Part shown: piece by piece, positions 19,913-35,429 of the stretch
Layout of the letters: every line of letters starts with the position of its first letter
Position numbering within the stretch: position 1 is the first letter of the stretch
Made by a program: the position numbers and the translations under genes
NCBI GenBank assembly: GCA_937944295.1
Contig: CALDZL010000059.1
Span: forward strand, 1 to 41,509
Length of the DNA stretch: 41,509 nucleotides
Direction of reading: 5' to 3'
Origin: an uncultured Sphingorhabdus sp.
Lineage (GTDB): Bacteria; Pseudomonadota; Alphaproteobacteria; Sphingomonadales; Sphingomonadaceae
The notes under the pieces: generated by a model
The model's database searches: none
The model's input: the letters and a program-made list of their open reading frames with translations, nothing else
Told to the model about the DNA's origin: nothing

Positions 19913-21406
<1,494 letters not shown>

Positions 21407-21439
21407 TCAAATTCATGCCCCTTATTGTGTAAATTTCAT

Positions 21440-22645
21440 ATGAGGCCGGCAGCCCGCGTAGAGGCGGCCATTCAGCTCTTGGACGAAATTATTATCGCAG
21501 CTCGTGATAATGGCAGTGCCGCGGATAATTTGGCGAGCGCATTCTTCAAAGCCCGCCGTTATGCAGGCTCTAAAGATAGGCGCGCTATTCGCGAATTAGT
21601 GTGGAATGCTATCCGGCGTTTTGGTGAACGGCCCGAAACAGGACGCTGCGCGATGGTCGCTATGGCGGATGGCGATGATGAGTTGGCCGCTTGTTTCGAT
21701 GGTTCGCAATATGGTCCAGCAATTATAACGCCCGATGAGCCGCGCGCGAAAGAAGGTTTCATTCCCCAGTGGATTGATAATAAATTGCCTAAGTTTATCA
21801 ACCAAGAGGAAAAACAAGCTTTACTAAACAGAGCACCGCTTGATCTACGCGTCAATATATCACGAACAAATAAAGCAGATGTGCTTGCATTCTTGGACAA
21901 TGCTGAGTCTGTTGGCGATCATGCTATAAGATTGCCGACGAACAGTGCGATTACGCAACTGCCTCTCTATCGGGATGGAATGATAGAAATCCAAGATTTT
22001 GGCAGCCAATTGATTATTGATGCATGCGGCGATGTTGAAGGTAAAAAGATTTTAGACTTATGCGCTGGAGCAGGCGGTAAAACATTAGCATTATTTGATA
22101 AGATATTGATAGCGCAGGCAGGAGAGATAGTTGCATCCGATGTTAACCGCGCTCGTTTATCTAAAATAGCAGAACGGCAAGCGCGCTTAATGCAAGTAGC
22201 ACCACATGATAAGAGTTTGGATACCATTCGCAAAATATTGCTTAATCCAGGTAAAGAAGTCGATATGCTCTCTGAATTTAGCAATAGTTTTGACATTGTT
22301 CTGGTCGATGCGCCTTGCTCTGGATCAGGGACTTGGCGGCGTAACCCTGAAACGCGCTGGAGGCTGAATCCAGAAAGGCTTGAGCAAGTCAAACGTCAGC
22401 AAGCGCGCGTTCTGGATATAGCGGCGCAGATGACGAAAAAGGGTGGTTTTATACTATATGCAGTTTGTTCTATCTTAGAAGAAGAAGGCTTAGAGCAAGT
22501 CAAAAAATTTATTTCATGCAATGGTAATTGGAAAGTTGACAATATTGATGTTGATTTTGGACGTAATATTGGTGATGGTAAAATTTTAACACCATATCAT
22601 GATAGTTGTGATGGCTTTTTCTATGCGAGATTGGAAAAATTGTGA
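21440..22645 (+). CDS. RsmB/NOP2-family rRNA (cytosine-5) methyltransferase
   Basis: Methylates cytosine C5 in rRNA; by family most likely 16S rRNA (RsmB type). The 401-residue protein (from ATG 21440) has an N-terminal NusB-like helical region (about 1-75), a SAM-binding Rossmann core with KILDLCAGAGGKTLAL, the motif IV Cys293 in DAPCSGSGTWRRNP, and the catalytic Cys343 in YAVCSILEEEG. Starts further upstream are only TTG without a ribosome site. It is 33 bases after guaB and probably co-transcribed with the TPR gene that follows. The exact target base is not determinable here. Confidence 0.92.
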   Translation: MRPAARVEAAIQLLDEIIIAARDNGSAADNLASAFFKARRYAGSKDRRAIRELVWNAIRRFGERPETGRCAMVAMADGDDELAACFDGSQYGPAIITPDEPRAKEGFIPQWIDNKLPKFINQEEKQALLNRAPLDLRVNISRTNKADVLAFLDNAESVGDHAIRLPTNSAITQLPLYRDGMIEIQDFGSQLIIDACGDVEGKKILDLCAGAGGKTLALFDKILIAQAGEIVASDVNRARLSKIAERQARLMQVAPHDKSLDTIRKILLNPGKEVDMLSEFSNSFDIVLVDAPCSGSGTWRRNPETRWRLNPERLEQVKRQQARVLDIAAQMTKKGGFILYAVCSILEEEGLEQVKKFISCNGNWKVDNIDVDFGRNIGDGKILTPYHDSCDGFFYARLEKL

Positions 22646-22704
22646 TTGAGAGCAAGAGTGATATAGATATTGCTGCTCGAAGGTTAGATTATTGGAATTT
22701 ATTT

Positions 22705-23217
22705 ATGCGTTTTTCACCCTTATTTGTGTCACTATCTCTATTTTTAACGACTGTATCAAGCGTTGGTTATTCGCAAAACCAAGACGATCAGGTCAGTGCG
22801 CAGGCGCAAACTTTTATGGACCAAGGTGCTGCTGCTATATTAGCAGGTAATCTTGATGAGGCGATCAGCTTTTATGAAACTTCATTGGCTTTGCACCCAC
22901 GCAATCGTAAAGCTTATATTGCTCTGGCAGAAATAGCAGAACAGCAAAAATTACTAGGTAAAGCTATCACCCTTTATAAAGAAGTATTGGAGATTAATCC
23001 AAATGATGAAATGGCGCTTATCCAACAAGGACGAGTTTTTGCACAAAAGGGAGCAATTGATCGGGCCGAGAAAAATTTAGCAAGATTTAATCTATTGTGT
23101 GGCATTAATTGTACGGCCAACGAAACTCTAAAAATAGCGATCACCGATGCATCCAACAAAGGCAAAATTTTAGCTAGCGAAATTAGCGTTACACCTGAGT
23201 CAGAATCCCAAAACTAA
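22705..23217 (+). CDS. Exported TPR-repeat protein
   Basis: A 170-residue periplasmic protein with a signal peptide (MRFSPLFVSLSLFLTTVSSV, cleavage near GYSQ-N) and about three tetratricopeptide repeats in residues 35-135 (AAAILAGNLDEAISFYETSL, AYIALAEIAEQQKLLGKAIT, ALIQQGRVFAQKGAIDRAEK). Two cysteines (LLCGINC) follow and could form a disulfide. A GTG at 22642 overlapping the rsmB stop would add 21 residues before the signal peptide, so ATG 22705 is preferred although its ribosome site is poor. TPR repeats suggest protein binding; partners are unknown. It is convergent with the DUF481 gene. Confidence 0.8.
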   Translation: MRFSPLFVSLSLFLTTVSSVGYSQNQDDQVSAQAQTFMDQGAAAILAGNLDEAISFYETSLALHPRNRKAYIALAEIAEQQKLLGKAITLYKEVLEINPNDEMALIQQGRVFAQKGAIDRAEKNLARFNLLCGINCTANETLKIAITDASNKGKILASEISVTPESESQN

Positions 23218-23231
23218 TATTTCAATATTAG
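23214..23231. terminator. Palindrome between convergent TPR and DUF481 genes
   Basis: A perfect 8-bp AT-rich inverted repeat (CTAATATT TC AATATTAG) includes both stop codons. There is no T tract on either side, so termination is only suggested by position. Confidence 0.3.
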
Positions 23232-24157
23232 AAACCATAAACCAATGTAATACGAGACAATGTGTCTGTGTTTACAGAACCGAGTGGCGGATTGCTCTCA
23301 TATTCAACCAAATAGGAAATACGCGCTGATAATGCGCTCGACAATTTTGCTTCTAAGGCTGTTTCCGAGGATAATGTTGTATTGGCCGATTCGATATAGG
23401 CAGTCGCATTTTCTGTAATACGCAAATTTTTTGAAAGTTGGTGGGAGAAATCCAGCCCCGCTAGAGCAGCAAGCGAGGATTGTGAACCGCCAGCAATGAA
23501 ATTTGTCTGACGAAAAGCCGGGCCAGCCTTGATCGCCAATTGTGTTTTTTCTTTATCAATAACTTGATAGCCTATGCCTCCGGAGGCAGTTAGACGGGAC
23601 GAAAACCCTTGAAAGCGATCACGCTCATATTGGCCTAATGCAAAAGCATAAAGGCGATCATTAATTTTATAATTAGGCTCGATAGCGGCCAAATATTGTT
23701 CTTTGGTTGTTACCCCATTGGTACGCTGGAAATCAGCAATTGCGCGAAAATTATAGCGCCATTTTTCACCTTCTTTGGTTAATTTTGCACCTACGGTTAA
23801 GCCTGTATTACTGCTATTCCCAGAAGAACGAAATGCTCCCAATTCGCCTTGCCCTGTCCAATTATCAAAAAAACCAGCTTGTGCTAATTCCACTTGTTTG
23901 GCTTTTTCGGCTTCGGCTAATTTAATTTTTTGTTGCGCATTATAATCATTTTCTATGGCTTCAATCTCTGCTAAATCACCAGGGTTAGTAGCTTTTGCTA
24001 ATTTAAGTGCGATTTTAACCTCATCGTCATTTCCGCCCGCAATAGCTGCATCAATGATCGACTTTACGGGTGCGGGAAGAGCCGCCAGTGCTGGCGTGGT
24101 GAATAAGATTGCGTATCCTAAGACGGGCAATGATTTGAGGGTAATATTTTTTATCAT
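23228..24157 (-). CDS. DUF481 outer-membrane beta-barrel protein (YdiY-like)
   Basis: Predicted outer-membrane barrel of 309 residues. A signal peptide (MIKNITLKSLPVLGYAILFT, cleavage near ALA-ALP) is followed by a charged helical segment (about 55-95, rich in AEAEKAKQVELAQAG), then the DUF481 domain with alternating beta strands (WTGQGELGAFRSSGNSSNTG, KWRYNFRAIADFQRTNG) and a C-terminal aromatic residue (TLVYGF), the usual barrel-insertion signal. DUF481 proteins were once called salt-induced outer-membrane proteins; the function is unknown. It is monocistronic and convergent with the TPR gene. Confidence 0.88.
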   Translation of the reverse strand: MIKNITLKSLPVLGYAILFTTPALAALPAPVKSIIDAAIAGGNDDEVKIALKLAKATNPGDLAEIEAIENDYNAQQKIKLAEAEKAKQVELAQAGFFDNWTGQGELGAFRSSGNSSNTGLTVGAKLTKEGEKWRYNFRAIADFQRTNGVTTKEQYLAAIEPNYKINDRLYAFALGQYERDRFQGFSSRLTASGGIGYQVIDKEKTQLAIKAGPAFRQTNFIAGGSQSSLAALAGLDFSHQLSKNLRITENATAYIESANTTLSSETALEAKLSSALSARISYLVEYESNPPLGSVNTDTLSRITLVYGF

Positions 24158-24231
24158 CCTTAAATACTATTGTGTAAATCATTGTTTCGCAACTGTGCAA
24201 AACTATGTTTTGCAAGATTTTAAAACTTGAA

Positions 24232-24741
24232 TTATTTATTCTCTATTTTCAGTATAGTAGAAAATTCTTGCGCTAGATTTGCATATATATCGCGTTTAAA
24301 GGGTACAATATTATCGGATAAATCTTCTATTTTGCTCCATTTCCATTCACTAAATTCGGGGATTTCCGTATCAATATTAATAGCATTATCCTCTCCCAAA
24401 TAGCGCATGAGAAACCAATATTGTCTCTGTCCGCGCCATTTCCCTTTCCACAATTTACCCAATAATTCCTCTGGCAGATCATAAAAATGCTCATTATTAC
24501 TTTGCGCTATCAATTTCACAGCATTGGCGCGAATCCCTGTTTCTTCTTCTAATTCACGAAAGGCTGCGTCCTGTGCTTCTTCGCCTTCATCAATACCGCC
24601 TTGCGGCATTTGCCATGCATCTTTCCATTTGCTGGTGCGATTATCATTGCGCTTGGCCACGAAAACCCGATTTTCAGTATTGACCAGCATAATTCCAACG
24701 CAGGGTCGATAGGGAAGCTGTGCATATTTTTCATCATTCAT
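24232..24741 (-). CDS. rppH: RNA pyrophosphohydrolase (Nudix)
   Basis: Removes pyrophosphate from 5'-triphosphate RNA, starting mRNA decay; the family also includes alphaproteobacterial IalA. The 169-residue protein begins with YRPCVGIMLVNTENRVFVAK, has WQMPQGGIDEGE and the complete Nudix box GIDEGEEAQDAAFRE then LEEETGI, followed by KLWKGKWRGQRQYWFLMRY, a segment typical of RppH. Length matches (about 160-175). It is divergent from korA with a 149-base gap. Confidence 0.95.
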   Translation of the reverse strand: MNDEKYAQLPYRPCVGIMLVNTENRVFVAKRNDNRTSKWKDAWQMPQGGIDEGEEAQDAAFRELEEETGIRANAVKLIAQSNNEHFYDLPEELLGKLWKGKWRGQRQYWFLMRYLGEDNAINIDTEIPEFSEWKWSKIEDLSDNIVPFKRDIYANLAQEFSTILKIENK

Positions 24742-24890
24742 TGTTTTTGCTCTATATTTCTGTGGTTAATCGCGATAGCGTGCCTATAGAATAAATATTG
24801 ATATTGCTAGGGAACAGATTTTCTAAATTGCATAATGATAGTTGCTTTAATAGTAAGAATAGCAAAAGATTTAATGGGTAGGAATAATAT

Positions 24891-26747
24891 ATGGCAAGTG
24901 CTGCACAAGTTTCGGATGAGCAAGCAGTAGACTCAGTTGTAGTACGTTTTGCAGGGGATAGCGGCGATGGTATGCAGCTCACAGGTGGGCAATTCACCCT
25001 TTCAACAGCCTTAGCGGGTAATGATCTGGCGACCTTTCCTGATTTCCCAGCAGAAATTAGAGCGCCGCAAGGTACATTATTTGGTGTTTCTGCTTTTCAG
25101 ATTAATTTCGGTTCGCGCGCTATTCATACCGCTGGTGATCAGCCAGATGTGCTGGTTGCAATGAATCCAGCGGCCTTAAAGGTCAATGTCGATAGCCTAA
25201 AACCCGGCGGCTTGATAATTGCGGATAGCGGCGAATTTGGCAAAAGAAACCTCGACAAAGCCAAATATGAAACCAATCCACTCGAAGATGGCTCTTTGGC
25301 GAAATGGCAGCTCTTAGCTTTTGATATTTCAGCGCTCACATTAGAAGCCGTTAAGCCCTTTGGCCTTGGCAATAAAGAAGCCTTGAGGTCCAAAAATATG
25401 TGGACGCTGGGTCTTGCGCTGTGGATGTTTGACCGCGACCGCCAGCCCATTGTAGATTGGCTCAATACAAAATTTGCCAAGAAACCCGAAATTGCGGAGG
25501 CTAATATAGCGGCTCTCAATGCGGGACATGCCTATGGTGAAACGGCCGAGCTTTCTGGCCCTGTCAAGCAAGCTACTCTCCCTGCGGCACCTGCTGATCC
25601 CGGTCTATATCGCACCGTGAATGGTGCGGAAGCTCTATCATTGGGCTTAGTTGCTGGTGCGCAAATGGCCGATTTGCCAATGTTTTTTGGCGGTTATCCG
25701 ATAACGCCCGCATCGGCAATTTTGCACCATCTCTCGCGCCTTAAAGAATATGGCGTCACCACATTCCAAGCCGAAGACGAAATCGCGGCCATCGCATCGG
25801 CCATTGGCGCTAGCTATGCTGGAACATTGGGCGTAACATCATCATCTGGCCCCGGTATTGCCCTCAAGGGTGAAGCGATGGGCCTCGCGATTATGACCGA
25901 ATTACCGTTGGTTATCGTCAATTCACAACGTGGCGGCCCTTCTACGGGACTGCCGACAAAAACCGAACAATCCGATCTGTATCAAGCCGTTTATGGCCGC
26001 AATGGTGATGCGCCGATGCCCGTGATTTCAGCCCGTTCGCCATCCGATGCGTTTGAATGCGCGATAGAGGCTGTGCGCATTGCAACGCAATATATGACGC
26101 CCGTAATGCTGCTCACCGATGGTTATATTGCCAATGCAGCTGAGCCTTGGCTCGTTCCTGACATGAGCGATTACACAGAGTTTGCTGTAGAGCATATGAC
26201 GCAAGCGCAAGAAGGCGGGTTCAAACCCTATGGCCGCGATGAAAAATTAGCGCGCCCTTGGATCAAACCTGGAACGCCCGAATTGATGCACCGTATTGGC
26301 GGCATCGAAAAAGGTGTGGATACAGGGCATATTGATTATGGCAGCGAAAACCATCAGGAAATGACCAATATTCGCCGCGATAAAGTGCTTGGCGTTGCGG
26401 ATAGCATTGGCGATCAACAGGTGGAGCTTGGTGAGGCTGGCGGTAAATTGGCGCTGATTGGTTGGGGATCTACTTATGGCCCTATCCACCAAGCGGTAAG
26501 CCGTTGCCGCGAAAAAGGCATGGATGTTAGCCATATTCACTTGCGTTATATTTGGCCTATGCCCAAAAATCTGGGCGAACTGCTGAAAAGTTATGAGCAT
26601 GTGATTGTTCCTGAAATGAATACAGGACAGCTTAAAACCGTGTTGCGCGATCAATATTTGGTTGATGCGAAGCCTTTGAACAAGGTTTCGGGGCAACCCT
26701 TCACTATCGCAGAAATTGAAACAGCCATAGCGGAGGCGCTAGGTTGA
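24891..26747 (+). CDS. korA: 2-oxoglutarate (2-oxoacid):ferredoxin oxidoreductase, fused gamma-alpha subunit
   Basis: With KorB, converts a 2-oxoacid, CoA and oxidised ferredoxin to acyl-CoA, CO2 and reduced ferredoxin. The 618-residue protein is a fusion: a gamma domain at about 12-190 (FAGDSGDGMQLTGGQF, TFPDFPAEIRAPQGT) and an alpha domain from about 215 (FGGYPITPASAILHHLSRL, QAEDEIAAIASAIGASYAG, TSSSGPGIALKGEAMG, LPLVIVNSQRGGPSTG). This domain order is that of two-subunit KorAB; 2-oxoglutarate is the likely substrate but pyruvate or other 2-oxoacids cannot be excluded. The start has a TAGGA ribosome site. GC is about 53% in a sampled line, higher than many neighbours. It is the first of seven genes with no spacing. 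Confidence 0.94.
   Translation: MASAAQVSDEQAVDSVVVRFAGDSGDGMQLTGGQFTLSTALAGNDLATFPDFPAEIRAPQGTLFGVSAFQINFGSRAIHTAGDQPDVLVAMNPAALKVNVDSLKPGGLIIADSGEFGKRNLDKAKYETNPLEDGSLAKWQLLAFDISALTLEAVKPFGLGNKEALRSKNMWTLGLALWMFDRDRQPIVDWLNTKFAKKPEIAEANIAALNAGHAYGETAELSGPVKQATLPAAPADPGLYRTVNGAEALSLGLVAGAQMADLPMFFGGYPITPASAILHHLSRLKEYGVTTFQAEDEIAAIASAIGASYAGTLGVTSSSGPGIALKGEAMGLAIMTELPLVIVNSQRGGPSTGLPTKTEQSDLYQAVYGRNGDAPMPVISARSPSDAFECAIEAVRIATQYMTPVMLLTDGYIANAAEPWLVPDMSDYTEFAVEHMTQAQEGGFKPYGRDEKLARPWIKPGTPELMHRIGGIEKGVDTGHIDYGSENHQEMTNIRRDKVLGVADSIGDQQVELGEAGGKLALIGWGSTYGPIHQAVSRCREKGMDVSHIHLRYIWPMPKNLGELLKSYEHVIVPEMNTGQLKTVLRDQYLVDAKPLNKVSGQPFTIAEIETAIAEALG
26732..26736 (+). promoter_or_regulatory. Ribosome binding site for a TTG start inside korA
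   Basis: GGAGG lies 7 bases before TTG at 26744, within the last codons of korA. It makes the overlapping TTGA start of the next gene credible. Confidence 0.6.
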
Positions 26748-27115
26748 GCGCTAACCGCTATCTATTCTACTTGATTCTCCATACAGGAGCGATGTTTGCA
26801 GTTGCATATTTAATTGCTTACAGTGCCGAACAATTAGGACTTAAATGCTTGGCATTATTATTAGGGTTTATCTTAGGTATTATCTGTGATTACTATCTTG
26901 AGATAATAAAATTAGATATGCCTGATTATCTAAAAATTCACCATAGAGGCTATAAGGATATGATAGTGCTTCTAATTGTAATGCCATTGCTTGTTGCTGC
27001 TATAATATATTATTTCACAGAAATAAGTTATTTAAATGCTGCAATTTTTGGCTACATTGTTGGAAATCATACAACAAACTTAGTGAGAGAATTTAAGACA
27101 TTAAAAGGTCAATGA
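26744..27115 (+). CDS. Unrecognised small membrane protein between korA and korB
   Basis: I do not recognise this 123-residue protein. It has about four hydrophobic segments (roughly 6-27, 33-55, 72-93 and 96-112) separated by a polar loop (KLDMPDYLKIHHRGYKD), no signal peptide and no cofactor motif, and ends in a basic tail. It begins at a TTG overlapping the korA stop (TTGA) with a GGAGG site, and its own stop overlaps the korB start (ATGA), so it is coupled on both sides. Two sampled lines are about 23% and 40% GC against about 52% in korA and korB. It could anchor or regulate the KorAB complex, or be a passenger. The position between two subunits of one enzyme is unusual. The reading frame is well supported; the function is not. 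Confidence 0.75.
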   Translation: MSANRYLFYLILHTGAMFAVAYLIAYSAEQLGLKCLALLLGFILGIICDYYLEIIKLDMPDYLKIHHRGYKDMIVLLIVMPLLVAAIIYYFTEISYLNAAIFGYIVGNHTTNLVREFKTLKGQ

Positions 27116-28149
27116 ATATGAATGAGATTACGAAAATCGAAACGACCCTAAAAGATTGGGAAACGGACCAAGAAGTAAGGTGGTGTCCTGGGTGCGGTGA
27201 TTATGCGATCTTAAAAGCCGTGCAGCGCACTATGCCGATGATTGGCGGCAGTCCTGCTAATACGGTATTTGTCTCGGGCATTGGCTGTTCGAGCCGCTTT
27301 CCCTATTATATGGAGACTTATGGTTTTCATACCATTCATGGCCGCGCACCCGCCGTCGCAACGGGGGTAAAGCTTGCCAATCCGGAATTGGACGTTTGGA
27401 TTATCACGGGTGATGGCGATGCGCTTTCGATTGGCGGTAATCATACAATGCACGTGCTGCGCCGTAACTTAAATTGCCAAATCATGCTGTTTAACAATGA
27501 GATTTACGGCCTAACCAAAGGGCAATATTCGCCAACATCGCGCGAAGGCACTAACAGCCCATCTACCCCTTATGGTAGCGTCGATCATCCTGCTAGCCCC
27601 TGTGCTTTTGCGCTGGGATCGGGTGCACGTTTTGTTGCACGCGGCATTGATATTAATAAGAATTTACCCGATGTTTTGATGGCCGCGCATGCCCATCAAG
27701 GCGCAGCATTTATTGAGATTTTTCAAAATTGTATTGTTTATAATAAAGATGTTTTCGAGGATTTTGCAGCCAAAAAAACCGCCGCCGCAACGCAGCTTTG
27801 GCTCGCCAATGGGGAACCTATGTTGTTTGACAAAGGCGTAAAGGGCATCGCATTAGACCAAGATGCAATGGCGTTAAAAGTCGTTGATGTTGTGGATGGC
27901 GATTGGGAAGCTGCTGGCGTGTTGCGTCATGACGTCACAAACCGCAGCGTCGCGCATATGTTGGTGGAATTACAATTTGGCGTATTTCCTATGCCGCTCG
28001 GCGTTATCTATGATGACCCAAAACCAACATTTGAAAGCGCCGTAGTCGCGCAAAATGAAGCCATTGCCGCAAATAAGAAACCTGATTTGCAGGCTTTGGT
28101 GAGCAAAGGCCAAACTTGGACAGTATCCGAGGATGGCCCTGATCTCTAA
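27112..28149 (+). CDS. korB: 2-oxoglutarate (2-oxoacid):ferredoxin oxidoreductase, beta subunit
   Basis: Thiamine diphosphate and [4Fe-4S]-binding subunit partnering KorA. The 345-residue protein has VRWCPGCGDYAILKAVQR (first two cluster cysteines), SGIGCSSRFPYYMETYGFHT (third), RAPAVATGVKLANPELDVW, the ThDP/Mg motif GDGDALSIGGNH and FQNCIVYNKDVFE (fourth cysteine). All are in their usual places, so the enzyme should be active. It lacks an added ferredoxin domain. The start overlaps the small membrane protein gene (ATGA); a second ATG two codons on is also possible. The next gene begins at the base after its stop. Confidence 0.95.
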   Translation: MNMNEITKIETTLKDWETDQEVRWCPGCGDYAILKAVQRTMPMIGGSPANTVFVSGIGCSSRFPYYMETYGFHTIHGRAPAVATGVKLANPELDVWIITGDGDALSIGGNHTMHVLRRNLNCQIMLFNNEIYGLTKGQYSPTSREGTNSPSTPYGSVDHPASPCAFALGSGARFVARGIDINKNLPDVLMAAHAHQGAAFIEIFQNCIVYNKDVFEDFAAKKTAAATQLWLANGEPMLFDKGVKGIALDQDAMALKVVDVVDGDWEAAGVLRHDVTNRSVAHMLVELQFGVFPMPLGVIYDDPKPTFESAVVAQNEAIAANKKPDLQALVSKGQTWTVSEDGPDL

Positions 28150-28656
28150 ATGAGAAGTTTGTGGATATTATCACCGCTACTGATAAGCACTATATTGTTC
28201 GGTTGTGCAGGAGGTGAGATTACAATTTCTCCATCGGACCCGTCTTTTCGGTCTAACTTTAAGATTATGAATAGCTCACAACCAACTGTTATCCGAGGAA
28301 AAGTAGTAAAAATAAAATCTCTGGGAAGTGATCCATGTCCTGATGGTCAAATATGTTTACATGGTTACTACAAGATAGATATTAGTGACATTACTAGAAT
28401 TTTAGGTGATGAAATAAATAAGGACATATCTGCTTTGATTGGCTGTGATTGTAGTTTTGACAAAAACGAAAGATTATTCATTGTCCAACAATCGATAAAT
28501 GAAAATTGGATATTGCTGAGTTGGAGTAATGTTGATGAAGAAATTTGTGTAAATGAAGAATATAGACCCAATGCTTCTTACAATTTGCAACGTGTTGGTT
28601 TTGAAAGAAGAGAAGATCAATGGTGTTACACTCTTGGTAAAATAGACAATGGATAA
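28150..28656 (+). CDS. Cysteine-rich lipoprotein, unrecognised (paralogue 1)
   Basis: A 168-residue protein with a lipoprotein signal (basic start, hydrophobic stretch, lipobox LFGC with Cys19), so it should be lipid-anchored in the periplasm. After the lipobox it has Cys63 and Cys69 in CPDGQICLHGYYKIDI, Cys99 and Cys101 (GCDC), Cys133 (EEICVNEEY) and Cys159 (QWCYTL). The CPDxxICxxGxY motif and the last two single cysteines recur in the product of the gene at 29641, so the two are paralogues. A sampled line is about 27% GC. It starts directly after the korB stop and ends inside the start of the hydrolase gene (8-base overlap). The function is unknown; paired cysteines suggest disulfides. Confidence 0.8.
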   Translation: MRSLWILSPLLISTILFGCAGGEITISPSDPSFRSNFKIMNSSQPTVIRGKVVKIKSLGSDPCPDGQICLHGYYKIDISDITRILGDEINKDISALIGCDCSFDKNERLFIVQQSINENWILLSWSNVDEEICVNEEYRPNASYNLQRVGFERREDQWCYTLGKIDNG

Positions 28657-29644
28657 TTTAACGCATAGTCTAGCAGGTGCTGTCTTGGGGCAAATGGGCC
28701 TGAAGAAGAAAACTGGCCTTGCCATGCCCGCTCTTATTATTGGCGCTAACCTTCCCGATATTGATGCGGCTTGCTTTTTTTGGCTCGATGGAACCCAGCA
28801 TTTGGGGTTTCGGCGCGGCATTACGCATGGCCCGATTGCAATGGTTATTTTGCCTATCATATTATGCGGTATTTTGATTGCCTATGATGCTTGGCAGTCA
28901 AAGCGCGGTAAACGACCTGAAAACCGCTTGCCCATTCATAGAGGATGGCTTTTTGCCTTGGCCTTTATTGGAACATTAAGCCACCCCGCACTTGATTGGC
29001 TCAATAATTATGGCGTGCGCTTTTTAGAGCCTTTTTCTTCACAATGGTTTTACGGCGATACAATGTTCATCATTGATTTGTGGATATGGCTTGCTTTGGG
29101 ATTGGGTCTGTTTATATCGTTGTGGCGTGAGAAAAAACAGCATATTCGCTGGTATCGGCCTGCGCTCATTTCTGGCGTGGCCGTGCTAAGCTATATCAGC
29201 GTTAATATGATGATTACAGCTGATGCTGTGTCCCGCACCGAAAATGAAATTAGCCAATCGGTTGATAGAAATCAGATTAAGCAGATAGTTGCAAGTCCTG
29301 TGCCCTTCATATTTTGGCATAGAGAGATTTTATTGGGTGATCCGAATAATTATTACCAAGCCAGCTATTCGCTATTTGATAAAGGCCGCGTGCTGGATGA
29401 TAGCACTCCTATTGAGGTTTCAAAACATGCGCCGCCTGTTCTCGACCTAGAGGAATTGCGCAAAAATAATCCCGATTTAGATGCCTTTCTCTTTTGGTCG
29501 CGTATGCCCTATCATGGCATAGTCCGCGAGGGTGAAGATACATATGCCGTGGTAAGCGATGCGCGCTTTACCCATCCATTGGTAGGAGATCGTTTTCGCG
29601 TGAAGATTAAGCTCGAAAAAGAGGTTCAATTTGTTGTGAAATGA
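28649..29644 (+). CDS. Membrane-bound metal-dependent hydrolase (YdjM/YbcI-type)
   Basis: Inner-membrane protein of the family annotated as metal-dependent hydrolases; the true reaction is not established. The 331 residues begin with the family signature MDNLTHSLAGAVLGQMGLKK, then ANLPDIDA and FRRGITHGPIAMVI, holding the conserved His and Asp residues. There are about four transmembrane helices (about 65-80, 97-115, 135-155, 172-190) and then a soluble C-terminal domain of about 135 residues. GC is about 47% in a sampled line, unlike its AT-rich neighbours. It overlaps the preceding lipoprotein gene by eight bases and the next by four (ATGA). Confidence 0.88.
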   Translation: MDNLTHSLAGAVLGQMGLKKKTGLAMPALIIGANLPDIDAACFFWLDGTQHLGFRRGITHGPIAMVILPIILCGILIAYDAWQSKRGKRPENRLPIHRGWLFALAFIGTLSHPALDWLNNYGVRFLEPFSSQWFYGDTMFIIDLWIWLALGLGLFISLWREKKQHIRWYRPALISGVAVLSYISVNMMITADAVSRTENEISQSVDRNQIKQIVASPVPFIFWHREILLGDPNNYYQASYSLFDKGRVLDDSTPIEVSKHAPPVLDLEELRKNNPDLDAFLFWSRMPYHGIVREGEDTYAVVSDARFTHPLVGDRFRVKIKLEKEVQFVVK

Positions 29645-30129
29645 AAAGATTATTAATTCTTCTTTTGATGTTTCTTGGTGGTTGTAAAACACCAACACCT
29701 AATATTGTGTTTGAAGAAAGAAATTTTACTTCATCTGTAAAATACACCGTTCTTCAAGCAGAGCTTGCCTCTCAGAAATATGTTGGCCTCCCTCATTGCC
29801 CTGATGATTATATATGCATAAATGGGGTGTATCTTATTGAACTAAAAAAGATAAACTATATTTCTGGTCAGGAATTTGGTAAAAAACCTATAGAAATATT
29901 ATTAGCAAAACATGGTAGAATTCCTGATATCAGAACTATTTTTTTGATTGCGATGGCTGATAATGGAGAGTTATGGGTAAGAAGTTATGATATTCCAGAT
30001 GATGAAGGTCTATTTTGTTTTAATAGTTTTTTTGATGGAAAGTATGAATTGACGCACTTAAAAAAAGTAAAGACACCCAGCGAATATACAAATCCAGAAC
30101 GATATTCTTGTTATGTAAACCATGAGTAA
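29641..30129 (+). CDS. Cysteine-rich lipoprotein, unrecognised (paralogue 2)
   Basis: A 162-residue predicted lipoprotein (MKRLLILLLMFLGGC, lipobox LGGC, Cys15). It repeats the pattern of the gene at 28150: Cys53 and Cys59 in CPDDYICINGVYLIEL, a central hydrophobic strand (TIFLIAMADNGELWV), then single Cys126 (GLFCFNSFF) and Cys157 (RYSCYV). The GCDC pair of paralogue 1 is missing. A sampled line is about 25% GC. It overlaps the hydrolase gene (ATGA) and the photolyase gene (8 bases). No function is known to me. Confidence 0.8.
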   Translation: MKRLLILLLMFLGGCKTPTPNIVFEERNFTSSVKYTVLQAELASQKYVGLPHCPDDYICINGVYLIELKKINYISGQEFGKKPIEILLAKHGRIPDIRTIFLIAMADNGELWVRSYDIPDDEGLFCFNSFFDGKYELTHLKKVKTPSEYTNPERYSCYVNHE

Positions 30130-31504
30130 ACCCATCATCCTCTGGTTTCGGCGGGACTTGCGCTTATCCGATCATGCGGCCTTAAACGCCGCTGTGCAGA
30201 CGGGCAGGCCCATAATCGCGCTCTATATTTTGGATGATGTGACGCCAAAGCACCGCAAAATGGGCGCAGCATCGCGCTGGTGGTTGCACCATAGCTTGAT
30301 GTCTTTGGATGAATCGCTGCAAAAATTGGGATCAAAGCTGATATTGCGGCGCGGTGAAAGCGCAAGAATATTAGAGCAAATCACGCAAGAAACGGGTGCA
30401 GATGCTGTTTATGCAATGCATCATTATGAGCCATGGTGGCGCAATGCTGAAAAAGCGGTGCGGGAGAAAATGACGCTGCATTTATTCGATGGTAATTATC
30501 TACTGCCGCCGGCCACATTGAAAACGGGTAGCGGCGGTTCTTATAAAATCTATACACCCTTTTGGAAGGCGCTGCGCGAGCATATGCCGCCGCCGCCGCC
30601 TTTGTCAGCACCCGATGCCATCATAACGCCATCATTACCGCAGAGCGATATTCTTGAGGATTGGGAGTTGCTACCCAAAAAACCGAATTGGGCAGGGGGA
30701 ATGGCCAGTAAATGGCAACCAGGAGAGCAGGGCGCAGCGCATTGCTCGCGCTTATTTGTTGATAAAGCGGCTTATTATGATGAGCAGCGTAATATTCCCT
30801 CTATTACTGGGACATCTGAACTGTCTGCACATTTGCATTTTGGTGAGGTTTCTCCAGCGACATTATGGCATATATTTGCGGGTGCTGGCGGCAGTGTAGA
30901 GGTGTTTCTTAAAGAGATTGTCTGGCGCGATTATGCGCAAAATGTCATCACCCAATACCCCAAATATGGCAGCGAAAATGCGCGCGATAGATTTGATGCA
31001 TTGCCTTGGCGTGATATGAATGATGAAACTGTAAAGGCTGATTTTACGGCTTGGACACAGGGGCGCACGGGTTATCCCATTGTCGATGCAGGTATGCGCG
31101 AATTATGGGCTACGGGAATTATGCACAACCGCGTGCGTATGATCGCGGGGAGCTTTCTCATCAAACATTTGTTGATTGATTGGCGGCATGGCGAGAGGTG
31201 GTTTTGGGATACTTTGGTTGATGCCGATTATGCTAGCAATGCCGTGAATTGGCAGTGGGTTGCGGGCACGGGGATAGACAGCAATATGTTTGTGCGGATC
31301 ATGGCACCGCTCTCGCAGTCCGAGAAATTTGATGCGGGCGATTATATCCGCAAATGGGTGCCAGAATTGGCGGGACTGGATGATCCTTATATTCATGATC
31401 CAGAAGAATATGGGATGACGCCCAAATCCTATGTGCGCAAAATTATTGGGCATAGAGATGCGAGGATGCGCGCTTTGGAAGCCTATCAGATTGTCAAATC
31501 ATAA
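30122..31504 (+). CDS. phr: Deoxyribodipyrimidine photolyase (cryptochrome/photolyase family)
   Basis: FAD enzyme that repairs UV-induced cyclobutane pyrimidine dimers with blue light. The 460-residue protein has the N-terminal antenna domain (ILWFRRDLRLSDHAALNAAV) and the FAD domain: TSELSAHLHFGEVSPATLW, FLKEIVWRDYAQNV, GRTGYPIVDAGMRELWATG, MHNRVRMIAGSFLIKHLL and NWQWVAGTGID. The trailing APLSQSEKFDAGDYIRKWVP is standard for class I CPD photolyases. All expected blocks are present. Its start lies eight bases inside the preceding lipoprotein gene. It is the last gene of the korA operon and converges on the gene at 31513 with only eight bases between stops. Confidence 0.95.
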   Translation: MSKPIILWFRRDLRLSDHAALNAAVQTGRPIIALYILDDVTPKHRKMGAASRWWLHHSLMSLDESLQKLGSKLILRRGESARILEQITQETGADAVYAMHHYEPWWRNAEKAVREKMTLHLFDGNYLLPPATLKTGSGGSYKIYTPFWKALREHMPPPPPLSAPDAIITPSLPQSDILEDWELLPKKPNWAGGMASKWQPGEQGAAHCSRLFVDKAAYYDEQRNIPSITGTSELSAHLHFGEVSPATLWHIFAGAGGSVEVFLKEIVWRDYAQNVITQYPKYGSENARDRFDALPWRDMNDETVKADFTAWTQGRTGYPIVDAGMRELWATGIMHNRVRMIAGSFLIKHLLIDWRHGERWFWDTLVDADYASNAVNWQWVAGTGIDSNMFVRIMAPLSQSEKFDAGDYIRKWVPELAGLDDPYIHDPEEYGMTPKSYVRKIIGHRDARMRALEAYQIVKS

Positions 31505-31512
31505 GGTTTAAT

Positions 31513-32061
31513 TTAAATAGTCTCTCTGGTGACATAGATTTGACCGATTTCCACGCTTTGTTTTTTGGCACCAAGCTGAATAGTCAGAGCTGCTTTTCCA
31601 CCTTTTAAATTCCTATTTGCTATGGCTTCATAAGATATGAGCTTCCACTCATTACTAATGGGTAGCTTATAATCCGCAAAACCATCATATGGGGAAAAGT
31701 TCTGTTGCAAGCGCGTGGTTATATCGGTTTCATTATCGGAACGCGCCCATAAATAGATACGCACCTTTTCACCAGCCATAATATCCTTAATGATTGGAAT
31801 ATTCACCCCTGCATCCCAGCGGTTGGGAGCCGCTTTTTTAATTTCTACTTTAATGCTGATGCCGCCTGGGATTGCTGGTGTTTCTATCTGTTTTGCTCTC
31901 AGTCTTGGCCCCCAAGTTTCCCATTGGAAAGATAGAGGATCATTGGCCAGATCACCTGGTAAAGCATCGTTAATTTGCTGCCTAGCCTCATCAAGGGTGA
32001 TGGCTTGCGTTGCAAATGCCGAGAATGACATCAAAATGGGAATGAAAATTTGATTCAGCAT
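31513..32061 (-). CDS. Exported protein with a carbohydrate-binding-module-like fold
   Basis: A 182-residue secreted protein: short signal peptide (LNQIFIPILMSFSAFATQA), then a single domain. The pattern AGVNIPIIKDIMAGEKVRIY with LWARSDNE, followed by EWKLISYEAIANRNLKGGKA and a final VEIGQIYVTRE, resembles jelly-roll CBM4/9-type domains, where these strands frame the ligand face. No catalytic domain accompanies it and it has no cysteines. It is probably monocistronic, 92 bases after the SDR gene. The ligand is unknown, and the fold assignment is by pattern only. Confidence 0.7.
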   Translation of the reverse strand: MLNQIFIPILMSFSAFATQAITLDEARQQINDALPGDLANDPLSFQWETWGPRLRAKQIETPAIPGGISIKVEIKKAAPNRWDAGVNIPIIKDIMAGEKVRIYLWARSDNETDITTRLQQNFSPYDGFADYKLPISNEWKLISYEAIANRNLKGGKAALTIQLGAKKQSVEIGQIYVTRETI

Positions 32062-32153
32062 ATCTATATCTCCTAATTGCTATTAGAATATAAAATATGA
32101 CAAGCTTGTCAATTATAGCGATGTAAAAGTTAGAGTGATATGCAGAATATAAA

Positions 32154-32861
32154 TTATTTCCCTAAAGCTAAATAATGCCCTGTTGCAAAATCGTTAGAAA
32201 GCAAGTTTAAGATTGATTCTGCAACAATGATAGGCTCTTTCACACTATTGGGATCTTCGCCTGGATAGGCTTTGGCGCGCATCTCTGTTCTGGTGCGGCC
32301 TGGGTCAACAATCGCAACTTTTATTTTTGATAAATTGGCGACTTCCTCGGCATAGCTTAATAATAAATTTTCAAACGCTGCCTTTGATGCGCCATAACCA
32401 CCCCAAAAGGCGCGCGCATTTCTGCCAACGCTAGACGATAATCCAATGAGTTTGGCATCCATAGACTTACGCAATAATGGATCAAAATTAGCAATTAAGG
32501 CTTGCTGCGATAAAAGGTTAAGCGTCAGGATTTGATTAAATTCTTTTGGGTCCATCTGCGAAACAGGCCCCAAATTGCCTAGCATTGCAGCATTTAATAT
32601 CATCACATCTAATTTATTCCATCGCTGCTCAATTGCATGAGCAAGACGGGTGATGCTATCGCCTTCGGTCAAATCGAGTGGTGCAATGGTTGCGCTGCCG
32701 CCAGCCGCAAATATCTCTTCTTCAACGCTTTCAAGATTCTTGCTGTTACGCGCACACATGATGACATGATAGCCATGATCAGCCAGAACTTTCGCAGTAG
32801 CAGCCCCAATGCCTTGGCTTGCTCCTGTTACTAGTGCTAATTTTTCTTCATTATCCGCCAT
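32154..32861 (-). CDS. Short-chain dehydrogenase/reductase
   Basis: Classical SDR oxidoreductase of 235 residues. It has the cofactor motif TGASQGIG (about residues 14-21), an Arg after the second strand (MCARNSK) that favours NADP(H), the NAA motif (ILNAAMLGN) and the active-site Ser plus YGASKAAFENLLLSYAEE (YxxxK). The PGRTRTEMRAKAYPGEDP loop is typical. The substrate cannot be predicted. It starts 18 bases after the purF stop on the same strand, a neighbour arrangement I have seen in sphingomonads. Confidence 0.9.
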   Translation of the reverse strand: MADNEEKLALVTGASQGIGAATAKVLADHGYHVIMCARNSKNLESVEEEIFAAGGSATIAPLDLTEGDSITRLAHAIEQRWNKLDVMILNAAMLGNLGPVSQMDPKEFNQILTLNLLSQQALIANFDPLLRKSMDAKLIGLSSSVGRNARAFWGGYGASKAAFENLLLSYAEEVANLSKIKVAIVDPGRTRTEMRAKAYPGEDPNSVKEPIIVAESILNLLSNDFATGHYLALGK

Positions 32862-32879
32862 TATTCATCCGTTATGATG

Positions 32880-34337
32880 CTAGCCCACTTTTTCGTTGAG
32901 CAATATTAATTGATCGGGCTGGGCCATTTCATCTTGATCGGTTAGGCTGGTCGGATAATTGCCCGTGAAACAAGCATCGCAATATTGCGGTGTATTGGTT
33001 TCACGCTTATGATAGCCTAGAGCGCGATAAAGCCCGTCTATACTGATGAAGGCAAGGCTATCAGCCTGTATGAATTCTCTCATTTCTTCCAAGTCCATAC
33101 GGCTTGCTAATAATTTTGAGCGCTCTGGCGTATCAACACCGTAGAAACAGCTATGCGATGTTGGCGGGCTGGCAATGCGCATATGCACTTCTGCGGCCCC
33201 CGCTTCGCGCATCATTTGTACGATTTTTAGACTGGTTGTTCCGCGCACAATGCTGTCATCGACCAAGATGATTTTTTTGCCTTCTACTAATATACGGTTG
33301 GCATTATGTTTGAGTTTAACCCCAAGGTGGCGAACGCCATCCCCTGGTTGGATAAAGGTTCGTCCGACATAATGCGAACGAATAATACCCAATTCAAAAG
33401 ATATTTTAGCCTCTTCGGCATAGCCCAGTGCAGCCGGAGTGCCGCTGTCTGGCACGGGAATGACATAGTCTGCATCAACGGGAATTTCTTTGGCCAACTC
33501 TGCGCCAATAGCTTTACGAACGCTATATACACTATTGCCATCGACGATTGAATCAGGGCGCGAGAAATAGACATGTTCAAATATGCAAGGTCGCGCTTTT
33601 TGCGGTGCAAATGGTTTATGTGATTGTAATTCGGCACCGCGCACGATGACAATTTCACCAGGTTCAACTGAGCGTACATATTCTGCACCTACAACGTCTA
33701 GGGCAACGGTTTCTGATGCAAATATATAACTATCACCCAATTTCCCAATAACAAGAGGTCTAACGCCTAGAGGATCACGGCATGCAATCATGCCTTCCGA
33801 TGTTAAACATAATAATGAATAAGCGCCTTCGACCTGTTTTAAGGCGTCGATAAGACGATCGATTAAGGTGCGATAGCCCGATGTTGCCACCAAATGAATG
33901 ATAACTTCGGTATCGGATGTTGATTGGAATATAGAGCCGCGGCGTACCAATTCTTTTTTTAATTTTTCTGCGTTAGAAATATTACCATTATGGGCCACAG
34001 CAAAGCCGCCTGATACCAAATCAGCGAATAGGGGCTGAACATTGCGCAAAGATGTTTCACCGCTGGTGGAGTAGCGCACATGTCCAACTGCAAATTTACC
34101 CGCTAGAGGCGCCATGGTATCTTCGCTGTCAAAATTTCCTGCGACATGGCCCATAGCCCTATGCGTTTGAAATTCTGATCCGTTAAATGCAGTAATTCCA
34201 GCAGCTTCTTGGCCTCTATGCTGTAAAGCATGCAGACCCAGTGCCGTCATCGCAGCAGCATCTTCGGCATTACATGCTCCAAAGATACCGCATTCTTCGC
34301 GCAATTTATCATCATCAAAAGGGTGCGTGGTCAGCAT
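32880..34337 (-). CDS. purF: Amidophosphoribosyltransferase, iron-sulfur type
   Basis: First committed enzyme of purine synthesis: PRPP plus glutamine to phosphoribosylamine. The 485 residues begin with a 15-residue propeptide; cleavage would expose Cys16 (ECGIFG) as the N-terminal nucleophile of the glutaminase domain. The PRPP loop is ILVDDSIVRGTT. Four cysteines in the places used for a [4Fe-4S] cluster in the Bacillus subtilis enzyme are visible: PCIFEHVYFSRP, HSCFYGVD and the pair in YCDACFTG. It therefore belongs to the propeptide-plus-cluster class, not the E. coli class. It is divergent from hisI. Confidence 0.97.
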   Translation of the reverse strand: MLTTHPFDDDKLREECGIFGACNAEDAAAMTALGLHALQHRGQEAAGITAFNGSEFQTHRAMGHVAGNFDSEDTMAPLAGKFAVGHVRYSTSGETSLRNVQPLFADLVSGGFAVAHNGNISNAEKLKKELVRRGSIFQSTSDTEVIIHLVATSGYRTLIDRLIDALKQVEGAYSLLCLTSEGMIACRDPLGVRPLVIGKLGDSYIFASETVALDVVGAEYVRSVEPGEIVIVRGAELQSHKPFAPQKARPCIFEHVYFSRPDSIVDGNSVYSVRKAIGAELAKEIPVDADYVIPVPDSGTPAALGYAEEAKISFELGIIRSHYVGRTFIQPGDGVRHLGVKLKHNANRILVEGKKIILVDDSIVRGTTSLKIVQMMREAGAAEVHMRIASPPTSHSCFYGVDTPERSKLLASRMDLEEMREFIQADSLAFISIDGLYRALGYHKRETNTPQYCDACFTGNYPTSLTDQDEMAQPDQLILLNEKVG

Positions 34338-34340
34338 GGT

Positions 34341-34426
34341 AAAGCGAATCCTATATGACTATTATGTGCAACCTATAGGACAGCAAAATCGATTTGTCTT
34401 TAATTTGTCATAATAACATTCGCTTT
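34341..34426. repeat. Nested inverted repeats in the purF-hisI intergenic region
   Basis: AAAGCGAAT (34341-34349) pairs with ATTCGCTTT (34418-34426). Just inside the left arm, TCCTATA (34349-34355) pairs with TATAGGA (34374-34380). The repeats lie just ahead of purF and could be operator sites for purine control, but chance in AT-rich DNA is possible. Confidence 0.35.
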
Positions 34427-34488
34427 ATCGAATATGCTGTTATAAAATGAGCTGGTTTAGCATATTTTAATTAGAAAGTCCTCCTAAA

Positions 34489-34869
34489 ATGAGCCTATAT
34501 GATAGTGAGAAGGGATTGATATTTAAACCTAAATTTGATTCCAATGGTCTGTTGAGTGCCATCATAACAGACGTAAAGGATGGTCAACTGTTAATGGTCG
34601 GTTTTATGAATCAACAAGCCATTGATAAAACGCTTGATAGCAATATTGTACATTTTTATTCGCGTAGTCGTCAAAAATTATGGATGAAAGGTGAAGCAAG
34701 CGGGCATATATTGAATGTTATAGATATTCGCATAGATTGTGACCAAGATGCTCTTTGGATAATTGCCAATCCTGAAGGACCAACTTGTCATACGGGAGTG
34801 AAAAGCTGTTTTTACAGACGGGTAAAAAATGGAGTTGCAAAAATGAATAGTTTGGAGATGATAGAGTGA
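34489..34869 (+). CDS. hisI: Phosphoribosyl-AMP cyclohydrolase
   Basis: Third step of histidine synthesis: opens the adenine ring of PR-AMP. The 126-residue protein is a lone HisI domain without the HisE part seen in enterobacteria. Motifs: MVGFMNQQAIDKTL, VHFYSRSRQKLWMKGEASGH, DIRIDCDQDALW (metal Asp residues and one Zn cysteine) and GPTCHTGVKSCFYRR (the other two Zn cysteines). Length is standard. It overlaps the following lipoprotein gene by four bases (GTGA). No good Shine-Dalgarno precedes the ATG; the TCCTCCT upstream is anti-sense to one. Confidence 0.96.
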   Translation: MSLYDSEKGLIFKPKFDSNGLLSAIITDVKDGQLLMVGFMNQQAIDKTLDSNIVHFYSRSRQKLWMKGEASGHILNVIDIRIDCDQDALWIIANPEGPTCHTGVKSCFYRRVKNGVAKMNSLEMIE

Positions 34870-35402
34870 AACTCATAATTATAATGACTATATTTTCATT
34901 CCTAGCGGCTTGCGACATTCCTGTAGAAAATAATCGTAGCGAAGCCCAACCGAGTGAAAATTTGGACAAAGCCGCCATTAGCGCAGGCATATTAAACGAT
35001 CCTGATAATATTCAATTAGAAGGACGTTTTGAATCGCGTAATGATATTGGGACAGACAAACTTTGCGCTATTAAAAAGGAAGATGGAGTTTATAATATTG
35101 GTATCTTAGCTATATTTGGTGAAGATAGTTTTTGTGAAGGACAGGGTATTGCTAGCCTAGATGGTGAAAATGTAATCATCTCATTAAATAAAAATGTCAG
35201 TAACAATAGAGAAATATGCGAATTTATGGTTTCTTTCGACGGTTTATCGATAATATTTCCCGGAGAAGTTCCTCAATCTTGTGCACAATATTGTAATAAT
35301 AGAGCAAGTTTGTCAGGGACTCGATATTTTCAAATTGAGACTGGTAATAATATTGCAAAACTATCTAATGGAAGAAATTTTAAACCGCTCTGTAAAGATT
35401 AA
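34866..35402 (+). CDS. Six-cysteine lipoprotein coupled to hisI, unrecognised
   Basis: A 178-residue predicted lipoprotein: signal stretch KLIIIMTIFSFLAAC with lipobox LAAC (Cys16). The mature part has six cysteines (67, 90, 118, 139, 143, 176), in TDKLCAI, DSFCEGQG, REICEFMV, SCAQYC and KPLCKD, enough for three disulfides. The middle (IQLEGRFESRNDIGTDKLCA, VYNIGILAIFGEDSFCEGQG) looks like a beta-rich domain. It uses a GTG start overlapping the hisI stop. It is not related to the CPDxxIC lipoproteins at 28-30 kb as far as I can align by eye. I recall similar proteins beside hisI in sphingomonads but know no function. Confidence 0.78.
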   Translation: MKLIIIMTIFSFLAACDIPVENNRSEAQPSENLDKAAISAGILNDPDNIQLEGRFESRNDIGTDKLCAIKKEDGVYNIGILAIFGEDSFCEGQGIASLDGENVIISLNKNVSNNREICEFMVSFDGLSIIFPGEVPQSCAQYCNNRASLSGTRYFQIETGNNIAKLSNGRNFKPLCKD

Positions 35403-35429
35403 GAAAGTCATCATAAATCTCGTTACAAT

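What the first reader, a model, noticed from the sequence alone, without database searches (positions are those of the whole stretch)
24891..31504. Seven-gene operon with no spacing in which GC-rich enzymes alternate with AT-rich unknown genes
Seen directly: korA, small membrane protein, korB, lipoprotein, hydrolase, lipoprotein, phr follow each other with junctions of -4, -4, 0, -8, -4 and -8 bases. Sampled 60-base lines give about 53, 23-40, 52, 27, 47, 25 and 47% GC in that order. So each of the three unrecognised small genes is AT-rich and wedged, translationally coupled, between two recognisable GC-richer genes. One explanation is repeated insertion of small accessory genes into an older operon; another is weak codon selection on fast-evolving small proteins in a genome drifting to AT. 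Either way a ferredoxin-reducing enzyme, a membrane hydrolase, two exported cysteine proteins and a light-driven repair enzyme are locked into one transcript.
Basis: partly seen in the sequence, partly recalled or inferred. Interest (0 to 1): 0.72.

Follow-up and report, generated by a model that had tools for sequence, protein, structure and literature searches.

The report
Small genes wedged into operon junctions
A conserved four-gene operon of a sphingomonad bacterium has a small, fast-changing gene for a membrane or exported protein fitted into each of its three tight gene junctions, while close relatives have those junctions empty or filled with other or strongly diverged small genes.

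Summary
The insertion idea is largely right. The old operon is korA-korB-hyd(YdjM)-phr. Three sister species keep it with KorA/KorB 94.5-98.5% identical; none has lip1 or lip2 there; one has a 31%-identical mem homologue in the same slot, another a different small membrane ORF at korB/hyd. Interrupted tight junctions: this window 3 of 3 in the operon, 0 of 16 elsewhere; sisters 2 of 9 against 9 of 580. Inserts use host signals: starts overlap or abut the upstream stop; stops of lip1 and lip2 lie inside the next gene's start. Core genes show mosaic similarity that suggests recombination between species. Composition has two causes: GC3 tracks conservation (rho 0.585, n=31), and the four core genes are unusually GC-rich. 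lip1/lip2 belong to a rare cysteine family, placed so far only in this operon or behind infC, so lip1 may be an old member kept patchily. Function and expression of the small genes are unknown.

The parts
24891..26747 (+). korA, alpha subunit of a 2-oxoacid:acceptor oxidoreductase; old core gene
   Evidence: PF01855 and PF01558 above cut-off; sisters 94.5-97.7% identical
26728..26747 (+). 3' end of korA: GGAGG, 7 bases, TTGA. The ribosome-binding-like sequence that precedes korB's ATG at the same spacing in uninterrupted sisters now precedes the TTG of mem
   Evidence: junction letters of four species
26744..27115 (+). mem, 123-aa membrane protein (3 hydrophobic segments by a crude scan), insert in the korA/korB slot
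   Evidence: no match above chance in Pfam, NCBIfam, PHROGs, PADLOC; G035 and G013 have an empty slot; 31% identical homologue in the same slot of G011
27112..28149 (+). korB, beta subunit; old core gene
   Evidence: PF02775 above cut-off; 97.1-98.5% identical in sisters
28150..28656 (+). lip1, 168-aa protein with hydrophobic N-terminus and four conserved cysteines, in the korB/hyd slot; its stop codon lies inside the start of hyd
   Evidence: no family; alignments; relatives in the same slot in other genera
28649..29644 (+). hyd, YdjM-type membrane protein; old core gene; first 720 bases 94-97% identical to G035, then 73-79%
   Evidence: PF04307 111.7 bits, cut-off 29; sliding identity
29641..30129 (+). 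lip2, 162-aa protein of the lip1 family, in the hyd/phr slot; stop codon inside the start of phr
   Evidence: lip1-lip2 about 28% identity, tblastn E about 1e-7; only copy besides lip1 found in this 86%-complete genome
30122..31504 (+). phr, DNA photolyase; old core gene; nearest to G011 (fourfold sites .78)
   Evidence: PF03441, PF00875 above cut-off

Best explanation
The window carries an old, tightly coupled operon korA-korB-hyd-phr whose three internal junctions act as slots that gain, lose and swap small, fast-evolving genes for membrane or exported proteins. In this genome all three slots are filled. Shown: empty junctions in sister species, other or strongly diverged genes in the same slots, no repeats of 12 or more bases at the joins, starts that overlap or abut the upstream stop, stops of lip1 and lip2 lying inside the downstream gene's start, and the sequence that serves as ribosome-binding site of korB in sisters now standing before mem. 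Inferred: the small genes are carried between species by homologous recombination in the conserved flanking genes, and translational coupling keeps the downstream enzymes translated, so that such insertions are tolerated. The GC alternation is a by-product: fast-evolving small genes take the AT bias of the genome, while the four core genes are unusually GC-rich. That the small proteins serve an envelope function under changing demand is a guess.
For: Sisters with KorA/KorB 94.5-98.5% identical have mixed slot states: G013 0 of 3 filled, G035 1 (98-aa membrane ORF at korB/hyd), G011 1 (mem homologue), this genome 3. In the genus korA/korB is interrupted in 4 of 30 assessable genomes and hyd/phr in 1 of 39 places. 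In 424-456 kb of three sisters 2 of 9 kor junctions against 9 of 580 other conserved tight junctions are interrupted (one-sided Fisher p 0.011). mem of this genome and of G011 are homologous (score 75; shuffles about 34; reached in 1 of 1000) although their flanks are 98% identical. Fourfold-site identity of core genes exceeds the window background (hyd-G035 .79, phr-G011 .78; background medians .47 and .35, maxima .57 and .65), and the nearest sister changes inside the operon. Junction letters. No repeats.
Against: The operon was picked because it looked odd, so 3 of 3 here is no independent test; without it the enrichment rests on 2 of 9, and junctions shared by three sisters are not independent. 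lip-family genes sit behind korB in several other genera, so lip1 may be old with losses elsewhere. No donor carrying lip1 or lip2 beside a matching tract was found: G035 and G011, nearest over the tracts, lack them. The korA/korB excess similarity may partly be codon constraint (korB-G013 .62 also exceeds background). Nothing shows that the small proteins are made. No intermediate or first insertion mechanism was seen.
Confidence: 0.66

Rival explanations
1. lip1 (and perhaps lip2) is an old member of the operon, kept patchily: it stood behind korB in the common ancestor of these genera and was lost in most species; lip2 is an ancient second copy.
For: The family is rare and was placed only behind korB, at hyd/phr (lip2) or behind infC. 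In the sample, 10 of 396 genomes match at E<=0.01 (one marginal); 6 have it in this operon and 3 behind infC; L096, L119 and G152 also have it in the operon. G435, of another genus, has a gene of the same subfamily in the korB/hyd slot with the same end (AATGGATAA inside hyd) as lip1.
Against: Six members behind korB in other genera form a second subfamily (split 100/99); lip1 and lip2 go with the infC-linked genes and G435. No genus mate shown (5; 7) has the family, nor do the genus loci held. Congeners G434/G574 and G435 hold different subfamilies in the same slot, which fits swapping better than plain inheritance. But lip1 with the other korB-linked members is not rejected (p-AU 0.13).
Confidence: 0.25
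2. Composition only: the small genes are ordinary fast-evolving operon members, AT-rich because codon selection is weak in a genome drifting to AT; nothing was inserted.
For: GC3 follows conservation in the window (Spearman 0.585, p 5e-4, n=31) and conserved genes such as 34866-35402 are as AT-rich; stretches of this clade have GC .42-.45 in a genus of mostly .53-.62.
Against: The genes are missing from the same junctions in sisters with 94.5-98.5% identical KorA/KorB; fast evolution does not make an empty junction. The high GC3 of the core genes (z +1.6 to +3.4) is not explained.
Confidence: 0.08
3. De novo birth: spacer DNA that grew at operon junctions of a T-rich genome became open and yielded membrane proteins.
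For: mem, the G011 and G035 inserts and the two rimM/trmD inserts are hydrophobic orphans of low GC (.27-.32). Thymine-rich sequence as a source of new membrane proteins: title and start of abstract of PMC7005711 seen in the listing, on yeast.
Against: lip1/lip2 have homologues with conserved cysteines in other genera; mem has a homologue of similar length and the same TTGA start in G011; the unfilled slots of the three sisters have gaps of -4 to 14 bases, no grown spacers.
Confidence: 0.12

Closest known systems
Insertion of accessory or ORFan genes into existing operons (operon life-cycle literature; recalled, the 2006 paper is not held)
   Same: lineage-specific, AT-rich, small genes added to an older operon
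   Different: here all three junctions of one short operon are filled, the joins keep 0-8 base overlaps on both sides, and slots hold other or strongly diverged genes in sister species
Overlapping stop/start translational coupling (PMC6728339; abstract and two passages seen)
   Same: ATGA-type overlaps between co-directional genes
   Different: here the overlap is found on both sides of newly arrived genes; TTGA, GTGA and CTGA variants occur
Mobile cassettes (integron cassettes, insertion sequences; recalled)
   Same: single small genes added as units at a defined place
   Different: no repeats of 12 or more bases at the joins; no recombinase recognised by eye among the ORFs of 20000-36000, no family search run for that
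GxxExxY-type genes (name recalled, not tested) at korB/hyd of other species
   Same: same junction used as landing site
   Different: ORF GC .46-.59, repeat-like borders by eye, another family

Membership tests
2-oxoacid:acceptor oxidoreductase (korA/korB) | POR_N, POR and TPP-binding domains in two neighbouring genes | tested here: met
   PF01855 175.6, PF01558 97.2, PF02775 99.1 bits, all above cut-off
2-oxoacid:acceptor oxidoreductase (korA/korB) | ferredoxin as acceptor and the actual 2-oxoacid substrate | not testable with these tools
   needs an assay
YdjM-type membrane protein (hyd) | PF04307 above cut-off | tested here: met
   111.7 bits, cut-off 29; hydrolase activity not testable
DNA photolyase (phr) | photolyase and FAD-binding domains | tested here: met
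   PF00875 163.4, PF03441 244.8 bits; repair activity not testable
Bacterial lipoproteins (lip1, lip2) | signal peptide with canonical lipobox before Cys | tested here: inconclusive
   N-termini end LFGC / LGGC, imperfect at -2 (motif recalled; read by eye)
lip1/lip2 cysteine family (defined here) | shared cysteines around a CP...IC core | tested here: met
   alignments of 6, 11 and 6 members; profile hits
OB-fold or netrin-like proteins (considered for lip1) | significant fold match | tested here: not met
   model pLDDT 65.2, pTM 0.62; no PDB match at E<=0.001; hits of highest probability are OB-fold proteins at E 0.49 or worse
Integron cassette or insertion sequence | terminal repeats | tested here: not met
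   no direct or inverted repeats of 12 or more bases around the three inserts
Integron cassette or insertion sequence | recombinase gene nearby | tested here: inconclusive
   none recognised by eye in ORFs of 20000-36000; no family search of all window genes
Known anti-phage defence or phage protein (mem, lip1, lip2) | PADLOC or PHROG family match | tested here: not met
   PADLOC none at E<=0.1; PHROGs only E>=0.2 for these three (the relative in L126 had E 0.0046 to a virion protein family)

The most novel reading that the evidence does not exclude
Translationally coupled junctions of core operons are scarless exchange slots: homologous recombination in the conserved genes on either side swaps small, fast-turning-over envelope-protein genes between species, and the slot's own ribosome-binding sequence, stop and start codons supply the expression signals, so that no mobile element is needed. 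In this clade the kor operon and rimM/trmD would be two such slots.
Probability: 0.3. Interest if true: 0.7.

Novelty: new variant of a known kind. Interest (0 to 1): 0.46.

Why it matters
It gives a clean comparative case of how orphan genes come to stand in core operons without visible damage: flanking proteins 94-98% identical, slots empty, filled, or filled with another gene, and the letters of both joins visible. If general, operon junctions would be a little-noticed route by which genomes trade small envelope genes without mobile elements, testable in any well-sampled genus. It also warns that alternating GC in an operon need not mean foreign origin: conservation alone predicts low GC3 here.

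Tried and rejected
Composition as proof of insertion: rejected, because GC3 tracks conservation and conserved genes are as AT-rich. Recent lip1-to-lip2 duplication: not supported; lip2 scores higher with L125 (121), L186 (113) and L181 (109) than with lip1 (107), lip1 scores 107 with lip2 and 105 with L186; a joint branch is not rejected (p-AU 0.38). Plasmid or phage origin: lip1 has no plasmid match and lip2 no phage match at E<=0.01 (the other two combinations and mem were not run). Family labels for the small genes: none in Pfam, NCBIfam, PADLOC; PHROGs at chance level for the window's three. Fold search: no significant match. Common origin of the membrane inserts: of five pairs aligned only mem G000-G011 is clear; mem G000 with the G035 korB/hyd ORF scores 49 (reached by 12 of 1000 segment shuffles), G011 with the G012 korA/korB ORF 43 (18 of 1000), mem G000 with the G035 rimM/trmD ORF 39 (49 of 1000), the two rimM/trmD ORFs 32 (617 of 1000); weak kinship of some is not excluded. 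Acquisition of korAB from a Parasphingorhabdus-like source: the KorAB tree (quick, SH-aLRT 96) puts the clade there, the hyd and phr trees do not; left open. A first Fisher figure used approximate counts and is replaced. In one search one row (L170) was given on the wrong strand and means nothing.

Literature: searches listed no paper that I recognised, from titles and abstract starts, as describing this pattern; that says no more than that.
Full report
What is there. The genome (G000, 2.29 Mb, 171 contigs, completeness 86%) belongs to Sphingomonadaceae. Within the genus this genome, G011, G035 and G013 have low GC (.42-.45 over the stretches held) against mostly .53-.62 in the others; G005 has .465. 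Gene names other than korA, korB, hyd and phr (rimM, trmD, infC, hisI and the like) were recognised by eye.

The old operon. In G011, G035 and G013 the order korA-korB-hyd-phr is kept behind a divergent nudix gene, with KorB 97.1-98.5% and KorA 94.5-97.7% identical. Their junctions: korA/korB is an ATGA overlap in G013 and G035; hyd/phr is an ATGA overlap in all three; korB/hyd is a 14-base gap in G013 and G011. mem, lip1 and lip2 have no tblastn match at E<=1e-3 in the syntenic stretches. Among 41, 38, 38 and 37 crude gene calls in the four stretches of about 40 kb, the genes with matches in fewer than two of the other three are this genome's three, a 127-aa membrane ORF of G011 at korA/korB, a 98-aa membrane ORF of G035 at korB/hyd, and one call at the window's edge (40913-41494), which matches further genomes and is an edge effect. 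Genome-wide absence of the lip family was tested for G011 and G035, not for G013.

In the genus (45 genomes) korB is found in 31 and hyd in 42. Of 30 genomes with korA and korB held together, korA/korB is interrupted by 150 bases or more in 4 (G000, G011, G036, G012). korB/hyd is clearly interrupted in 5 of 28 (G000, G035, G014, G250, G036); G001, whose korB is split, and a second fragment of G012 are unclear. hyd/phr is interrupted in 1 of 39 places, this genome. In 80 named Sphingomonadales loci, partly the same species, gaps of 150 or more occur at korA/korB in 6 of 79, korB/hyd in 25 of 51, hyd/phr in 5 of 36, and korB/phr in 6 of 15 loci where no hyd was detected. So korB/hyd is a common landing place in the wider group, often for a GxxExxY-type gene (name recalled) or a gene on the other strand (whose output was cut in the middle; the cut loci were seen only as gap sizes and in part). 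hyd/phr is less often broken.

A control. In 424-456 kb of G013, G035 and G011 I counted co-directional orthologous neighbours at most 60 bases apart in at least one of the other genomes. Outside the operon 0 of 196, 5 of 195 and 4 of 189 such junctions are interrupted; inside it 0, 1 and 1 of 3. Together 2 of 9 against 9 of 580 (one-sided Fisher p 0.011; the same junction in several sisters is not independent). In this window it is 3 of 3 against 0 of 16, but the operon was chosen because it looked odd. The 11 inserted ORFs of G035 and G011 and this genome's three have no blastp match at E<=1e-5 in the other stretches. Of these 14, 12 lie in the direction of the flanking genes and 12 are 98-168 aa long. 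Six of 14 have three or more hydrophobic segments by a crude scan, against 9 of 94, 10 of 95 and 11 of 95 conserved genes of 90-200 aa. GC3 lies under the 5th percentile of conserved genes in 5 of 6 (G035) and 3 of 5 (G011). At rimM/trmD G035 has a 112-aa membrane ORF and G011 a 104-aa one, without detectable similarity to each other (score 32, shuffles 34). Of 30 genus loci fetched there 26 could be assessed: 20 tight, 6 interrupted. So the process is seen elsewhere in the clade, at about 2% of tight junctions, and the kor operon looks enriched.

How the joins look. In G013 and G035 korA ends GCGGAGGCGCTATCATGA, the ATG being korB's. In this genome and G011 it ends GCGGAGGCGCTAGGTTGA, the TTG being the start of mem, so mem stands at the ribosome-binding-like sequence that serves korB in the others. 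In G011 TATCATGAATGAG, the letters of the uninterrupted junction, is still present at the far end, and the inserted frame runs through it to a TGA eight bases into korB. lip1 ends AATGGATAA, letters of hyd's start ATGGATAAT; lip2 ends CATGAGTAA inside phr's start. No direct or inverted repeats of 12 or more bases lie around the three inserts. mem of this genome and of G011 are homologous: 31% identity, local score 75 against about 34 in shuffles, reached once in 1000 segment-preserving shuffles, with flanking proteins 98% identical; so the small gene evolves very fast or was replaced by a distant allele. Similarity of mem to the G035 korB/hyd ORF is weak (score 49, reached by 12 of 1000) and undecided.

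Recombination. Fourfold-site identity of this genome to the sisters over 31-32 background window genes has medians .35 (G011).47 (G035).47 (G013) and maxima .65.57.57. The core genes have korA .70/.64/.55, korB .70/.78/.62, hyd .47/.79/.47, phr .78/.57/.55. Within hyd the first 720 bases are 94-97% identical to G035, then .73-.79. phr is .89-.93 identical to G011 over its first 840 bases.84 in the next 120 and .90-.93 in the following three windows. Excess similarity to G011 goes on into the two genes downstream (32154.65; 32880.55). So stretches of different nearest sister meet inside this operon, which suggests exchange between species. It does not show that the small genes rode on these tracts: G035 and G011 lack lip1 and lip2. 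The KorAB tree groups the clade with Parasphingorhabdus-like sequences rather than most of its genus (SH-aLRT 96, quick tree); the hyd and phr trees do not.

Composition. GC3 rises with conservation among 31 background genes (Spearman .585, p 5e-4). The line, extrapolated below the data (lowest background gene about 59% identity), gives GC3 of .15-.22 at 30-50% identity; the small genes have .20-.27. The core genes lie above it: korA +1.6, korB +1.6, hyd +2.8, phr +3.4 residual standard deviations, and 11 values printed for the sisters are .41-.485 (G035 phr was not printed). The AT-rich half of the alternation therefore needs no foreign origin.

The lip family. lip1 and lip2 share about 28% identity and cysteines around a CP...IC core. 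Searches found no third copy in this genome. Profile searches of evenly drawn samples find the family in 3 of 298 Sphingomonadaceae, 10 of 396 Sphingomonadales (one marginal at E 0.0014) and 2 of 385 Alphaproteobacteria (the second marginal with stops inside). Thirteen members were placed. Ten are in this operon: lip1, lip2, L096, L119, L126, L180, L182, L183, L184, L186; L096 and L119 came from loci fetched by KorB and are not unbiased. Three stand behind infC in one genus (L125, L181, L185). The tree of 12 (L180 left out) splits 100/99 into a subfamily of six found behind korB in other genera and one holding the infC-linked genes, lip1, lip2 and the G435 gene. The G435 gene sits at korB/hyd with a CTGA start overlap and the same AATGGATAA end as lip1. 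Species of one genus (G434 and G574 against G435) hold different subfamilies in the same slot. So the family is tied to this slot, and lip1 may be an old member lost elsewhere or one of several arrivals; the tree does not decide (p-AU .13 for lip1 with the other korB-linked ones). AlphaFold2 gave a mostly-beta model of modest confidence from 4 sequences (pLDDT 65, pTM .62); PDB matches are not significant, the more probable being OB-fold proteins.

Verdict. The function of the small genes, the way they first entered and their expression remain open.

Noticed in passing
window 34866-35402: AT-rich gene with hydrophobic N-terminus overlapping a hisI-like gene by 4 bases, conserved in all three sisters at 54-63% identity: fast-evolving but retained, a useful control.
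   Followed up: partly
korB/hyd junction: L043, L044, L046, L048 (8078-8467), L045 (4291-4680), L055 and L058 (8091-8492), L170 (10051-10452, reversed locus), also G014 and G036: GxxExxY-type genes (name recalled) with repeat-like borders in the same junction; G008, G015, G023, G027 and G356 have 126-139 base gaps there, some beginning with similar repeat-like sequence.
   Followed up: no
L269, L271, L273, L276 (rimM/trmD): Gaps of 757-1242 bases between rimM and trmD, each beginning TATATAC right after rimM's TAG; content not examined.
   Followed up: no
L041 (G036) and L118, korA/korB junction: Isochorismatase-like gene (by eye) of 177 and 182 aa in the korA/korB junction of two species.
   Followed up: no
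L146 and L175 (G012): korB matches on two contigs of one genome, one beside a 100-aa membrane ORF at korA/korB (GC .416 in a .538 locus); two copies or a mixed assembly.
   Followed up: no
L125 1450-1989, L181 1486-2007, L185 1483-2013: lip-family genes directly behind infC in one genus, spacing -4, 14 and 11 bases.
   Followed up: partly
L238 4129-4587, strand -: Orphan cysteine-containing protein with hydrophobic N-terminus at another tight junction of G035, beside a gene resembling LprI-type proteins (recalled).
   Followed up: no
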